NCBI RefSeq assembly: GCF_020382885.2
Contig: NC_058494.1
Coordinates: forward strand, 27,006,329-27,070,328
Reading direction: 5' to 3'
DNA length: 64,000 nt
From: Scatophagus argus
Taxonomy: Eukaryota > Chordata > Actinopteri > Scatophagidae
Shown here: in pieces, positions 16,788 through 35,451 of the stretch
Position numbering within the stretch: position 1 is the first letter of the stretch
How the letters are laid out: each line of letters starts with the position of its first letter
Notes under the pieces: generated by a model
Seen by the model: only the letters and a program-made list of their open reading frames with translations
The model's database searches: none
What the model was told of the DNA's origin: nothing
Program-made: the position numbers and the translations under genes

Positions 16788-18572
16788 TTAGCAGGGCACT
16801 GCTTCCCTCTCCTGAGGCGGCTTCTCTTCAGTGTGGATTTTTCTTACGTGAAGTGACAAGTCCCAACGCCGTCTGAAGCATTTCCCACAGGTTTTGCAAC
16901 AGTACGGCATCTCACCTGTGTGGATTCTCATGTGCTCCACACAGGATCTCTTCTGACTAAAAGGTTTCCCACATGTTATGCAAACGTACGGCTTCTCACC
17001 CCTGTGGATTCTCATGTGCACTGACAACTTACTACTCAGTCTAAAAGGTTTCCCACAGGTTTTGCAAACGTACGGCTTCTCACCTGTGTGAATTCTCATG
17101 TGCAGCATCATGGTACGACTCTGCGTAAAACCTTTCCCACATGTTTCGCATACGTACGGCCTCTCACCTGTGTGTAATCTCATGTGAATTGACAAGGACA
17201 TCTTTCGATCAAAACATTTCCCACATGTTTTGCAAACATATGACTTCTCACCTGTGTGGACTCTCATGTGCCATGACAAGTAACCACTCTTGGTAAAACC
17301 TTTCCCACATGCTTTGCAAACATATGGCTTCTCACCTGTGTGGATTCTCATGTGCACTGACAAGGAACTCTTCCGACAAAAATCTTTCCCACATGTTTTG
17401 CAAACGTATGGCTTCTCACCTGTGTGGAGTCTCATGTGAACTGACAACTTACTACTCAGTCTAAAACCTTTCCCACATGTTTTGCAAACGTACGGCTTCT
17501 TACATGTGTGCACTTTCATGTGGCATGACAAGGTGCTACTCTGTGTAAAACCTTTCCCACATGTTTTGCATACGTACGGCTTCTCACCTGTGTGGATTTT
17601 CAAATGAACGTTCAGCTCTGATGTACGCCTGAATCTTTGTCCACAACTGCTGCAAGAAAATGGCTTCTCACCTGTGTGGATTCTCAGGTGTGCCTGAAAT
17701 ACTGACTTGTACTTAAAATCTTTTCCACAATAGTCACATATAAAAGCCTTTTTACCTGCCTCAGAACTGCTGTGAGTTTTTAACGTGCTGGGGTTGTGTA
17801 CATTCTTATGACTTTTCCGTTTGTGCTGTTGTGAGTCTTCATGTTTGCCTCCGTTCTGATCTCGACTCTCAGCTGCATCAGAGTTGTTGCAGAGCAGCTT
17901 CACGTCACTGTTTGCTTCTGATACCACAGAGCTTGAAACTGACATGTTTACTACACACTCACTCTGTGCTGCATTTTCAGTTTCATCAGGATTCAAGTAC
18001 ACATTCTGATCTTCACTTTGCTCATTTTCCTCATAAGCAGGAGTCAACATAAAGGATTCAGTCTCCTGCTTCAGTACAAGCTGCTCTCCCTCCTGATTGG
18101 TGCAGAGTTCCTCCTCTTCCTCTTTAATCTGTGGAGGCTCTGGGTCCTCTTGGTCCACAGCGGAGCTCCTCTCCTGGTTACAGAGCTGCTGCTCAGTGAG
18201 AAGCTCCTCCTCCTTACAGACATGTTGCTGTGGGAGCTCTGGAGGACAGAGAACACAGGGAACACAATACTACTGTGACAGTACAACGACACAGACATGA
18301 GAGCAAATGGGGACCAGCATATGTTCAAATAATTACAATTAAACAGGGTTAAACGTAATTCCTCTGTTTCGTGTTAATGAGACAATGTAATGTTACATAC
18401 CTATCCTGTGTAACTTTATCTCGGGTTTCCACACTACAGCCAGCAGCCTGCGCTGACGATCGACTTCCTCTTCATACTCGACGATAGTTTTGTTAAAAAC
18501 TCCGAATATTTCTTCAGCAGCAGCAGTTAGTCGCTCGATGACAAACTGTCTCAAATACTCAACTGAAGACAT
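16788..18572 (-). CDS. C2H2 zinc-finger protein, unit A (11 fingers)
   Basis: Two exons: leader 18572-18401 (172 nt, ATG at 18572) and finger exon 18238-16788 (TAA), joined by a 162-bp phase-1 intron; 540 residues. Residues 1-57 form a charged, probably coiled-coil leader starting MSSVEYLR. An acidic spacer of about 160 residues follows, rich in E, Q and S and including [18 protein letters not shown]. Eleven fingers of the Krueppel type follow, linked mostly by TGEKP. Finger 3 has TCKKP instead, finger 9 RGEKP, and the last has the longer spacing HVRKIH. No KRAB, BTB or SCAN domain is present. The product is probably a nuclear sequence-specific DNA-binding protein; targets are unknown. Unit A alone has a 6-bp insertion (two extra residues) in the spacer, near 17817. 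A TTTATT at 16310-16315 could be its minus-strand poly(A) signal. Confidence 0.9.
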
Positions 18573-18660
18573 TGTTTGAAACTGGAAAAATATCCACCCT
18601 GCGCAAATATCTTCTTCCCGTTGATTCACGTAGGCAGCTAACGCAAGTAGCACTTCTATT

Positions 18661-18728
18661 GTTTACTTCCGCCGAATGTTACGCTGTTAAGTTCCGACAG
18701 TGTAACCCCGAGAACTTTTTGTTCTGAT
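18661..18728 (-). promoter_or_regulatory. Shared upstream module of unit A
   Basis: About 90 bp upstream of the unit A start codon is a block containing CGCTGTTAAGTTCCGACAG and GAACTTTTTGTTC. It recurs upstream of units B, C and D. Conservation between copies fits a common core promoter or simply recent duplication. Confidence 0.5.
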
Positions 18729-18939
18729 TTCAAATGTTGGTGACATAGACATAATAAAGAGTAGCTACTGCCTTTTTCTGTCATTTGTATTAATTGAGAA
18801 TGTAACCTGAAGAACAAGTCATCATGAGCTAGCCACTCCAGTACAGTAGGTGGCGATATGCACCTTTTAAGCTGGTTGCAAAACGCCAAAATCACCCAGA
18901 GAGAGAGAGAGCGCTGCTGCCTATTGGCGCTGACGAGCC

Positions 18940-18960
18940 GTGGGGCCGCCATCTTGGACC
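18940..18960. promoter_or_regulatory. YY1-like site upstream of unit A
   Basis: GGCCGCCATCTTGGACC matches a YY1 site on the minus strand, about 370 bp upstream of the unit A start, in a locally GC-rich stretch. It may mark a further promoter, but no gene could be attached to it. Confidence 0.3.
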
Positions 18961-32775: not shown

Positions 32776-32879
32776 ATTAAGATTGTTTACAGACAAAAAC
32801 AACAAACACTAAGACTATTAGAAACTTAACACCAAAAATGTTCATATATCAACAACTCATCTTTATGGAACACATTTTA

Positions 32880-34100
32880 TAACAATTCCAAGAAAGTTGG
32901 AACACTGTGAAATGGAAATAAAAACAGAATGCAGTTATTTGCACATCTCATAAACCCATATTTTATTCACAGTAGAGAAAACATTTCAAATGTTGAGAAT
33001 GAGCAACTTTATTATTTTATGAAAATACTACCTAATTTTGAAATTTATGGCAGCAACTCATTTCAAAGAAATGGGATAGGGCCATGTTTACCAAGGTGTA
33101 GCATCCCCGGGAACCGAGGGGACCAGTTGCCGGAGTTCTGTGATGGGAATGTTGTCCCATTCTTGCCTGATACAGGATTTTAACCACTCAACAGTCCTGG
33201 GTCTTCTTTGTCATATTTTGCGTTTTAAGATGCACCAAATGTTTTCAGTTGGTCGTGAAAGGTTTGGACACCCGGACTCCTCTTCTACACAGCCATGCTG
33301 CTGTCAGCACGCTGCTCATTCCATAGACACTAAAACACCCTCACACCATCAGAGAGGCAGGCTAGCGAACTGTTCAAGGGCTTGATGGCTGCCTGCTTCA
33401 GCACAGGATAAATGGTGCTGGTTTTCAGGCAGGTGGGGACTGTGGCTTGTTCCAGGGAGGTGTTGAACAGGCTCATGAAGACTTCACTCAGTTGGCCTGC
33501 ACAGTGTTTCAGAACCCGCCCGGGAATGCCGTCCAGTCCAGGTGCCGTACCCGGGCTGATGTTGCCGAGGGCTCGCCTCACCTGGTGCTCGCTCAGCACC
33601 AGGACATGTGATGTGGACTCCCTAAGTCCAGTGTGGTGGTGATTGGTGCCCTCGTCGAAGCGTGCGAAGTTGAAATTTGTTGAGGTCGTCAGGGAGAGTT
33701 GGGTTGTGTGAGCTGAGCAGACAGGAGTTATTGTTCTCGTAGTCAGACTTAATGCCTTGCCACATACACCTGGGGTCAGAGTCCTCAAAGTGCTGCTCTA
33801 TCATTCTTTTGTAGGAACGCTTAGCTTCCCTGATGCTCCTCTTCAGGTTGGCCCTGGCTGCTGAGTAAGCCACCTGATCGCCTTAGTGAAAAGCATTGTC
33901 TCTCAGTGTCAGCAGACTCTGGACTTCTCCGTTCATCCAGGGCGGAAAAGTGCGGATGGTCTTGTGAGTAGTGACATTGTCCACTGTCAACATTTGATAT
34001 GTTTCCACTGTTATTCTGTGAATAAAACATGAGATATGTATGAGAGTATGAGATTTGCAAATCACTGCATTCTATTGTTGTTTACACAGCATCTGAATTT
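32880..34100. mobile_element. Long-TIR DNA transposon with nested L2
   Basis: Inverted terminal repeats of about 110 bp: the left (from about 32885) contains AAACAGAATGCAG and CATAAACCCATATTTTATTC. The right (to about 34097) contains the reverse complement, GAGATTTGCAAATCACTGCATTC. Internal sequence with GGGCCATGTTTACCAAGGTG is typical of an abundant fish DNA transposon whose superfamily I cannot fix. No transposase ORF remains. An L2 fragment is nested inside. The right end is about 26 bp from the unit D stop codon. Confidence 0.7.
33365..33970 (-). mobile_element. L2-type LINE fragment nested in DNA transposon
   Basis: Minus-strand frames contain AYSAARANLKRSIREAKRSY, then SEHQVRRALGNISPGTAPGL, DGIPGRVLKHCAGQLSEVF and FNTSLEQATVPTCLKTSTI. 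This is the region between endonuclease and reverse-transcriptase core of L2-like elements. Frameshifts and loss of both ends show it is inactive. Confidence 0.75.
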
Positions 34101-34125
34101 GTAGCTTTCACAAACAAATACAACA

Positions 34126-35451
34126 CTACTTGTCTGTATGTGATCTTCGATGCTGTCCTAATTCAGACACACAACAGAATCTTTTCCCACAGATTTTGCA
34201 AAGGTACGGCTTCTCACCTGTGTGGGCTCTTCTTACATGGGCTGTCAAGTGACCACTGCGTCTGAAACCTTTCCCACATGTCTTGCATGAGTATGGTTTC
34301 TCACCCATGTGCACTCTCTTGTGGTCGGACAAGGAACCGCTAAATGCGAATCGTTTCCCACACGTTTTGCAAACGTACGGCTTCTCACCTGTGTGGACAT
34401 TCATGTGATTTGACAAGTGACCACTACATCTAAAAGCTTTTCCACATGTTTTGCAAAGGAAAGGCCTCTCACCTGTGTGGACTCTAAAATGAATGTTCAG
34501 TGTTGATCTACGACTGAATCTTTTTCCACAACTGCTGCAAGAAAATGGCTTCTCACCTGTGTGGACTCTCAGGTGTATCTGAAATACTGACTTGTACTTA
34601 AAATCTTTTCCACAATAGTCACATATAAAAGCCTTTTTACCTGCCTCAGAACTGCTGTGAGTTTTTAACGTGCTGGGGTTGTGTACATTCTTATGACTTT
34701 TGTGCTGTTGTGAGTCTTCATGTTTGCCTCCGTTCTGATCTCGACTCTCAGCTGCATCAGAGTTGTTGCAGAGCAGCTTCACGTCACTGTTTGCTTCTGA
34801 TACCACAGAGCTTGAAACTGACATGTTTACTACACACTCACTCTGTGCTGCATTTTCAGTTTCATCAGGATTCAAGTACACATTCTGATCTTCACTTTGC
34901 TCATTTTCCTCATAAGCAGGAGTCAACATAAAGGATTCAGTCTCCTGCTTCAGTACAAGCTGCTCTCCCTCCTGATTGGTGCAGAGTTCCTCCTCTTCCT
35001 CTTTAATCTGTGGAGGCTCTGGGTCCTCTTGGTCCACAGCGGAGCTCCTCTCCTGGTTACAGAGCTGCTGCTCAGTGAGAAGCTCCTCCTCCTTACAGAC
35101 ATGTTGCTGTGGGAGCTCTGGAGGACAGAGAACACAGGGAACACAATACTACTGTGACAGTACAACGACACAGACATGAGAGCAAATGGGGACCAGCATA
35201 TGTTCAAATAATTACAATTAAACAGGGTTAAACGTAATTCCTCTGTTTCGTGTTAATGAGACAATGTAATGTTACATACCTATCCTGTGTAACTTTATCT
35301 CGGGTTTCCACACTACAGCCAGCAGCCTGCGCTGACGATCGACTTCCTCTTCATACTCGACGATAGTTTTGTTAAAAACTCCGAATATTTCTTCAGCAGC
35401 AGCAGTTAGTCGCTCGATGACAAACTGTCTCAAATACTCAACTGAAGACAT
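34126..35451 (-). CDS. C2H2 zinc-finger protein, unit D (6 fingers)
   Basis: Leader exon 35451-35280 (ATG at 35451) and finger exon 35117-34126 joined by the 162-bp intron; 387 residues. The MSSVEYLR leader is identical in protein to A and C, and the spacer matches C. Six fingers follow. The first two correspond to those of the other units; the remainder have their own recognition residues. The last is YLCKICGKRF with CVSELGQH, ending RRSHTDK. Linker 4 reads HMGEKP. It has the shortest finger array. Its 3' UTR is displaced by the DNA transposon ending at about 34100. It is divergent with npepps, the two start codons lying 970 bp apart. Confidence 0.88.

What the first reader, a model, noticed from the sequence alone, without database searches (positions are those of the whole stretch)
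16788..35451. Five-unit zinc-finger cluster: homogenised 5' halves, diversified finger arrays
Units A, C and D share the same leader exon, the same 162-bp intron and an almost unchanged 160-residue acidic spacer (A differs by a 6-bp insertion). Yet they carry 11, 8 and 6 fingers whose recognition helices differ. Neutral duplication would age both halves alike. The contrast suggests recent duplication or continuing gene conversion of the 5' half with turnover and selection on the fingers, as in vertebrate arrays thought to track transposons.
Basis: partly seen in the sequence, partly recalled or inferred. Interest (0 to 1): 0.75.

Follow-up and report, generated by a model that had tools for sequence, protein, structure and literature searches.

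The report
Zinc-finger genes with copy-pasted front halves
A small cluster of probably fish zinc-finger genes has had its front halves overwritten with one common copy while the DNA-reading ends keep changing under selection; it is a clear example of a known kind of evolution, not a new kind of system.

Summary
Four tandem minus-strand C2H2 genes (A-D) and finger relicts (E) lie at 16.6-35.6 kb. A, C and D are identical over leader, intron and spacer: 0 substitutions in 822 aligned bases, apart from A's 6-bp insertion. Their 5' flanks differ (A-D 5/150, A-C 47/138, C-D 44/138). B shares the spacer (3/488), but the only leader found upstream of it is diverged (23/172; Ks 0.43 against 0.02). Diverged homologous sequence flanks the tract on both sides, so replacement by gene conversion fits better than whole-gene duplication; identical intron and silent sites rule out protein constraint. 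At least two rounds are implied. Finger arrays have diverged (finger-2 Ks 0.06-0.34; 11, 9, 8 and 6 fingers). DNA-contact codons have omega 2.02, other helix positions 0.78, scaffold 0.33; omega=1 at contacts is rejected, p=1.4e-4. Refinement: conversion also reached the arrays (about 190 bp shared by B fingers 5-7 and C's end). The transposon link is analogy only. The host genome could not be searched, so generality is untested. Positive selection and gene conversion in poly-zinc-finger genes are already published.

The parts
18401..18572 (-). Unit A leader exon (57 codons + 1 nt), donor GTATGT
   Evidence: identical to C and D leaders (0/172)
18239..18400 (-). Unit A intron, 162 bp
   Evidence: identical in A, C and D (0/162)
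17745..18238 (-). Unit A acidic spacer, with the 6-bp insertion
16788..17744 (-). Unit A array of 11 C2H2 fingers to the stop codon
16596..16745 (-). Relict of A's old terminal finger and 3' flank, about 75% identical to those of C and D
25515..25686 (-). Diverged intact leader exon, probably unit B's (23/172 differences from A, C and D)
22307..22794 (-). Unit B spacer, 3/488 from A, C and D; shared tract begins about 70 nt inside the intron
21548..22306 (-). Unit B array of 9 fingers
21049..21428 (-). Sequence 3' of unit B shared with 31229-31483 (69%) and, in part, 32581-32788 (93%)
29286..29457 (-). Unit C leader exon
29124..29285 (-). Unit C intron, 162 bp
28636..29123 (-). Unit C spacer; part of the 946-bp perfect match 28531-29476 with D
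27952..28635 (-). Unit C array of 8 in-frame fingers
27829..28044 (-). End of C's array: finger 8 and its out-of-frame continuation, sharing a tract of about 190 nt with B fingers 5-7 (2 substitutions, 5- and 8-bp deletions)
27317..27455 (-). Relict of C's terminal finger and flank (27364-27455 is 90% identical to D 34115-34206)
31655..32073 (-). Unit E: frame-broken relict of five fingers, no leader or spacer found
31229..31483 (-). 3' flank of E, 69% to B's 3' flank
32581..32788 (-). Orphan 3'-flank sequence, 93% to B's 3' flank; probably the remains of a lost unit
35280..35451 (-). Unit D leader exon
35118..35279 (-). Unit D intron, 162 bp
34630..35117 (-). Unit D spacer
34126..34629 (-). 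Unit D array of 6 fingers
35452..35620 (-). 5' flank of D: about 95% to A's flank 18580-18741; partly alignable with C's flank

Best explanation
This is a tandem cluster of poly-zinc-finger genes, most likely teleost, each with a leader exon, an acidic spacer and a finger array. The units are old duplicates. Their 5' halves were repeatedly overwritten by ectopic (interlocus) gene conversion, most recently across A, C and D and earlier over B's spacer. The finger arrays change by internal duplication, loss, frameshift and some array-to-array conversion, and the base-contacting helix residues evolve under positive selection for new DNA specificity. Shown: the sharp identity tracts, their diverged homologous flanks, silent-site homogeneity, and omega above 1 at contact codons. 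Inferred: gene conversion as the molecular process; its confinement because leader plus spacer is the longest in-register homology and because overwriting fingers is selected against. By analogy only: the proteins are repressors aimed at transposable elements, with the 5' half as the shared effector.
For: Core 0/822 among A, C and D against 5' flanks of 5/150 (A-D), 47/138 (A-C) and 44/138 (C-D), Fisher p=8e-5, 1e-43 and 1e-40; longest difference-free run exceeds 10,000 column permutations for each of the three pairs, also on flank, intron and third-codon columns alone. Intron 0/162, so constraint on protein cannot explain it. B: spacer Ks 0.02 but upstream leader Ks 0.43, tract edge inside the intron. 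Diverged 3' relicts downstream, 75% (A-D) and 90% (C-D). Finger 2 Ks 0.06-0.34. Contact omega 2.02, other helix 0.78, scaffold 0.33; counting gives 1.66 (1.29-2.12), 0.83, 0.42.
Against: For A-D the flanks differ by only 3-5%, so that pair alone could be a fairly young duplication with a further conversion; on the reduced columns its run of 432 only just exceeds the largest permuted run of 430. Permutation treats sites as exchangeable. The leader at 25.5 kb may not belong to B. Finger orthology and a single finger tree are uncertain under recombination; without unit A the contact ratio falls to 1.31, with no interval computed. Conversion cannot be told from double crossover from one assembly. 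No relatives from other species and no genome-wide data.
Confidence: 0.82

Rival explanations
1. Very recent whole-unit tandem duplication, followed by rapid replacement of the finger arrays.
For: Core identity is complete, and A and D also share about 160 bp of 5' flank at 95%.
Against: C's 5' flank differs from D's at 44/138 and from A's at 47/138, and flank and core differ significantly for A-D as well. 3' relicts are 75-90% identical. The leader upstream of B is unlike the others although its spacer is the same.
Confidence: 0.08
2. Unequal crossing-over within the cluster, with breakpoints near finger 1, repeatedly joined one 5' half to different arrays.
For: It would place one 5' half on different arrays; arrays differ in finger number, and lost-unit remnants exist.
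Against: A single crossover carries the 5' flank along with the 5' half; C's flank differs from A's and D's, and B's tract begins inside the intron. Two exchanges per event would be needed, which amounts to a conversion tract.
Confidence: 0.07
3. Assembly artefact: near-identical repeats polished to one consensus.
For: Zero differences over 822-946 bp is what a mis-polished repeat could give; reads were not available.
Against: A's 6-bp insertion and B's 3 spacer changes survive inside the shared tract, and tract ends differ between pairs.
Confidence: 0.03

Closest known systems
Poly-zinc-finger families of fish and mammals (Emerson and Thomas 2009, PMC2604467; passages seen)
   Same: Tandem C2H2 arrays; positive selection among recent paralogs including 27 Takifugu rubripes genes (p=3.58E-15 in their Table 2); GENECONV found short conversions in a few genes of many sets and in most genes of the two chicken sets.
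   Different: The passages seen do not describe conversion confined to the 5' half; genes with conversion were removed there as a nuisance.
FiNZ zinc-finger genes of cyprinids (Wells et al. 2023, PMC10547256; passages seen)
   Same: Two-exon layout with a Glu-rich N-terminal domain in its own exon and fingers in the next; positive selection in four of seven zebrafish clades; knock-down de-represses young transposons.
   Different: FiNZ is a 28-residue domain reported as unique to cyprinids; the leader here is 57 residues and, by eye against the recalled FiNZ sequence, unlike it (no alignment run). 'Gene conversion' occurs 0 times in that text.
Tetrapod KRAB zinc-finger (KZFP) clusters (PMC5363842; passages seen)
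   Same: Clustered genes, shared effector, diversified contact residues; the authors name unequal crossing-over and gene conversion as routes.
   Different: No KRAB match in the leader; KRAB-ZNF and TRIM28 are stated to be absent from ray-finned fish, where KRAB-like ZNFs and TRIM33 are proposed (PMC11603059, abstract and passages).
PRDM9 (search listings only)
   Same: Finger turnover with selection at contact positions.
   Different: A gene with a KRAB and a methyltransferase domain (abstract listing of PMC2794550); neither was found here.

Membership tests
Poly-C2H2 zinc-finger gene cluster | Tandem C2H2 fingers with canonical spacing and HTGEKP linkers | tested here: met
   zf-H2C2_2 and zf-C2H2 matches in all four units A-D; 84-bp period
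Poly-C2H2 zinc-finger gene cluster | Several tandem paralogous genes | tested here: met
   four genes plus relicts on one strand
Poly-C2H2 zinc-finger gene cluster | Positive selection at helix -1, 2, 3, 6 | tested here: met
   omega 2.02, p=1.4e-4
KRAB zinc-finger genes (KZFP) | KRAB domain | tested here: not met
   leader exon ORF of A: 0 Pfam families at E<=0.001; no KRAB among the matches of the exon-2 ORFs
FiNZ zinc-finger genes | 28-residue FiNZ domain | not tested
   no FiNZ sequence or model was compared; only lengths and a recalled sequence
Ectopic gene conversion | Identity tract with sharp edges inside more diverged homologous sequence | tested here: met
Ectopic gene conversion | Species-wise clustering of the converted tract (concerted evolution) | not testable with these tools
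   no relatives found; host genome search did not complete
Transposon-repressing zinc-finger genes | Binding to and repression of transposable elements | not testable with these tools
   no binding or expression data

The most novel reading that the evidence does not exclude
A lineage-specific fish counterpart of KRAB and FiNZ genes in which recurrent gene conversion keeps one shared effector cassette (leader, intron, spacer and scaffold up to finger 1) current across the cluster, while selection protects and diversifies contact codons even inside the converted tract. Conversion would then be a working part of an arms race: it updates the effector in all copies at once without resetting DNA specificity.
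Probability: 0.3. Interest if true: 0.65.

Novelty: new member of a known kind. Interest (0 to 1): 0.42.

Why it matters
It separates two forces usually blurred in zinc-finger clusters: conversion that erases differences in the effector half, and selection that creates them at DNA-contact codons. Trees built on the 5' half of such genes would mislead (core Ks 0 between copies whose flanks differ by up to about a third), so counts of recently duplicated fish zinc-finger genes may be inflated. If the pattern is general, it allows a direct test of whether effector homogenisation is a by-product of homology or is itself favoured.

Tried and rejected
Protein constraint as the cause of 5' identity: rejected, because intron and synonymous sites are identical too. 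SUMO-site clustering as a mechanism for the spacer: two consensus sites against 0.59 expected in shuffles, p=0.115; not significant, dropped. A coiled coil in the leader: a crude heptad count (10 of 17 a/d positions hydrophobic for A, C, D; 8 of 16 for B) decides nothing. A known effector in the leader: 0 Pfam families at E<=0.001, 0 NCBIfam at E<=0.1, best PDB sequence match E=0.66. Relatives elsewhere: leader in viral contigs, none confirmed of 152 pattern stretches; spacer plus finger 1 in genome contigs, which holds prokaryotes, none of 37. Literature: five short peptide strings of the leader type, 0 papers; zinc finger + interlocus gene conversion + cluster + fish, 3 papers, none about zinc-finger clusters by title. 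RNA families: 0 at gathering score; tRNA genes: 0. IQ-TREE's omega per class was not recovered, so I wrote the fixed-sites model, which uses the nucleotide tree with one scale factor. One search timed out and was redone; one search failed on a formatting slip and was redone.

Rows dropped before counts: A's 6-bp insertion is removed in spacer and core counts; gapped flank columns are left out; the out-of-frame finger C9 and unit E are left out (34 fingers) but kept (40 fingers, 39 edges), which also reports a subset without E (21 edges, 1.67, 1.22-2.25). In one search the subset of 26 close edges gave 2.04 (1.51-2.85).
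Full report
What is there. All units lie on the minus strand. Four of them (A 16788-18572, B 21548-25686, C 27952-29457, D 34126-35451) have a leader exon of 172 coding nt with a GTATGT donor, an intron, and a second exon that codes a 163-residue acidic spacer (165 in A) followed by C2H2 fingers. Predicted proteins are 540, 472, 447 and 387 aa. The intron is 162 bp in A, C and D, and 2,720 bp in B if the leader at 25.5 kb belongs to B. E (31655-32073) is a frame-broken finger relict. The orphan 3'-flank sequence at 32581-32788, 93% identical to B's 3' flank, suggests that a further unit was lost.

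Is the 5' half homogenised? Yes. Among A, C and D, leader, intron and spacer have no substitution in 822 aligned bases; A alone has a 6-bp insertion, removed before counting. The perfect match is 946 bp for C-D, and 765 bp for A-C and A-D up to the insertion. Immediately upstream, A-D differ at 5/150, C-D at 44/138 and A-C at 47/138, gapped columns left out. Immediately downstream, fingers 1-2 differ at 11-16 of 168. The longest difference-free run exceeds all 10,000 permutations for each pair, and still does when only flank, intron and third codon positions are kept, though for A-D narrowly (432 against a permuted maximum of 430). With 0 changes in about 299 intron and synonymous sites, the 95% upper bound on core divergence is 1%, against a Ks of 0.43 for the 25.5-kb leader.

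Conversion or duplication? The identical tract is bracketed by sequence that is still homologous but diverged: the 5' flank and 3' relicts of the old last finger, 75% (A-D) and 90% (C-D) identical. B gives a natural control. Its spacer differs from the others at 3/488 (Ks 0.02), while the leader upstream of it differs at 23/172 (Ks 0.43; Fisher p=1.4e-11), and B's tract stops about 70 nt inside the intron. A whole-gene duplication does not do this. B's tract carries 3 spacer changes and one in the intron, that of A, C and D none, so at least two rounds are implied. Inside the arrays, B and C share a tract of about 190 nt with 2 substitutions at non-corresponding fingers (B 5-7; C 8 and its broken tail), so conversion is not limited to the 5' half. 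For A-D alone, whose flanks differ by only 3-5%, a fairly young duplication plus conversion remains possible.

Are the fingers diversified by selection? In a fixed-sites codon model on 34 fingers, omega is 2.02 for positions -1, 2, 3, 6; 0.78 for -2, 1, 5; and 0.33 for the rest. Contact omega=1 is rejected (p=1.4e-4), as is equality with the other helix positions (p=1e-5). Counting along a minimum spanning tree of 40 fingers gives 1.66 (bootstrap 1.29-2.12), 0.83 and 0.42. Subsets give 1.31-1.72 for contact sets, lowest without unit A, with no interval computed. Finger 1 is instructive. It lies at the edge of the homogenised tract, and of the 4 codons that differ between units 3 are contact codons (A at +6; B at -1 and 3), each changed at two bases (p=0.010). 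Finger 2 is less striking: summed over six non-independent pairs, 13 of 47 nonsynonymous differences fall on contact codons. Caveats: finger orthology is uncertain, recombination violates a single tree, and the sample is one cluster.

How it probably works. The proteins have the layout of repressor zinc-finger proteins: an N-terminal effector candidate, an acidic spacer and a DNA-reading array. The leader matches no Pfam or NCBIfam family and no solved structure convincingly; a structure prediction did not finish. The leader-spacer segment is the longest unique stretch that aligns in register between units, so it is a natural substrate for ectopic conversion, and each conversion renews that homology. 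Events that overwrite fingers would reset DNA specificity and may be selected against. The tract map supports the first half; the selective half is inference. Transposon silencing is by analogy to FiNZ genes (PMC10547256, passages) and to fish KRAB-like ZNFs with TRIM33 (PMC11603059, abstract and passages).

Against the known. Positive selection in fish and mammal poly-zinc-finger genes, and gene conversion among them, are published (PMC2604467, passages; PMC5363842, passages; PMC2443715 was also looked at and mentions gene conversion only in a reference). In the nine literature searches made I saw no listed title or abstract start that describes conversion confined to the effector half of a fish cluster; the lists were capped, and the library lacks most subscription papers. 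I therefore file this as an unusually clear member of a known kind.

Noticed in passing
8207-8689 (+), inside ORF 5705-9004: A 63-bp tandem repeat (7.7 copies, 90% matches) in a long ORF with many CPWE/CPWD motifs; it recalls the C-terminus of GPR179-type receptors (recalled; 0 Pfam families).
   Followed up: no
27540-27800 (-): Read by eye, a tRNA-derived SINE-like insert sits between C's broken array and its old last finger; part of it (27624-27726) repeats at 19690-19777 at 77%. No tRNA gene or Rfam family was called there.
   Followed up: partly
30672-31037 (+): Reverse-transcriptase fragment between units (PF00078, E=2.5e-6, just below Pfam's cut-off); the ORF at 20454-20939 (-) matches PF09004 and also looks retroelement-derived (recalled).
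   Followed up: partly
59080-59769 (-): Ribosomal L21 family ORF (PF00829), probably mitochondrial MRPL21 (recalled); an ordinary neighbouring gene.
   Followed up: partly
36393-36776 (+): ORF whose end looks like the start of a puromycin-sensitive aminopeptidase (recalled; 0 Pfam families); it marks the right edge of the cluster.
   Followed up: no
27957-28485 (-): C's array contains an internal 255-bp (three-finger) duplication, 82% matches: array growth by blocks of fingers.
   Followed up: no
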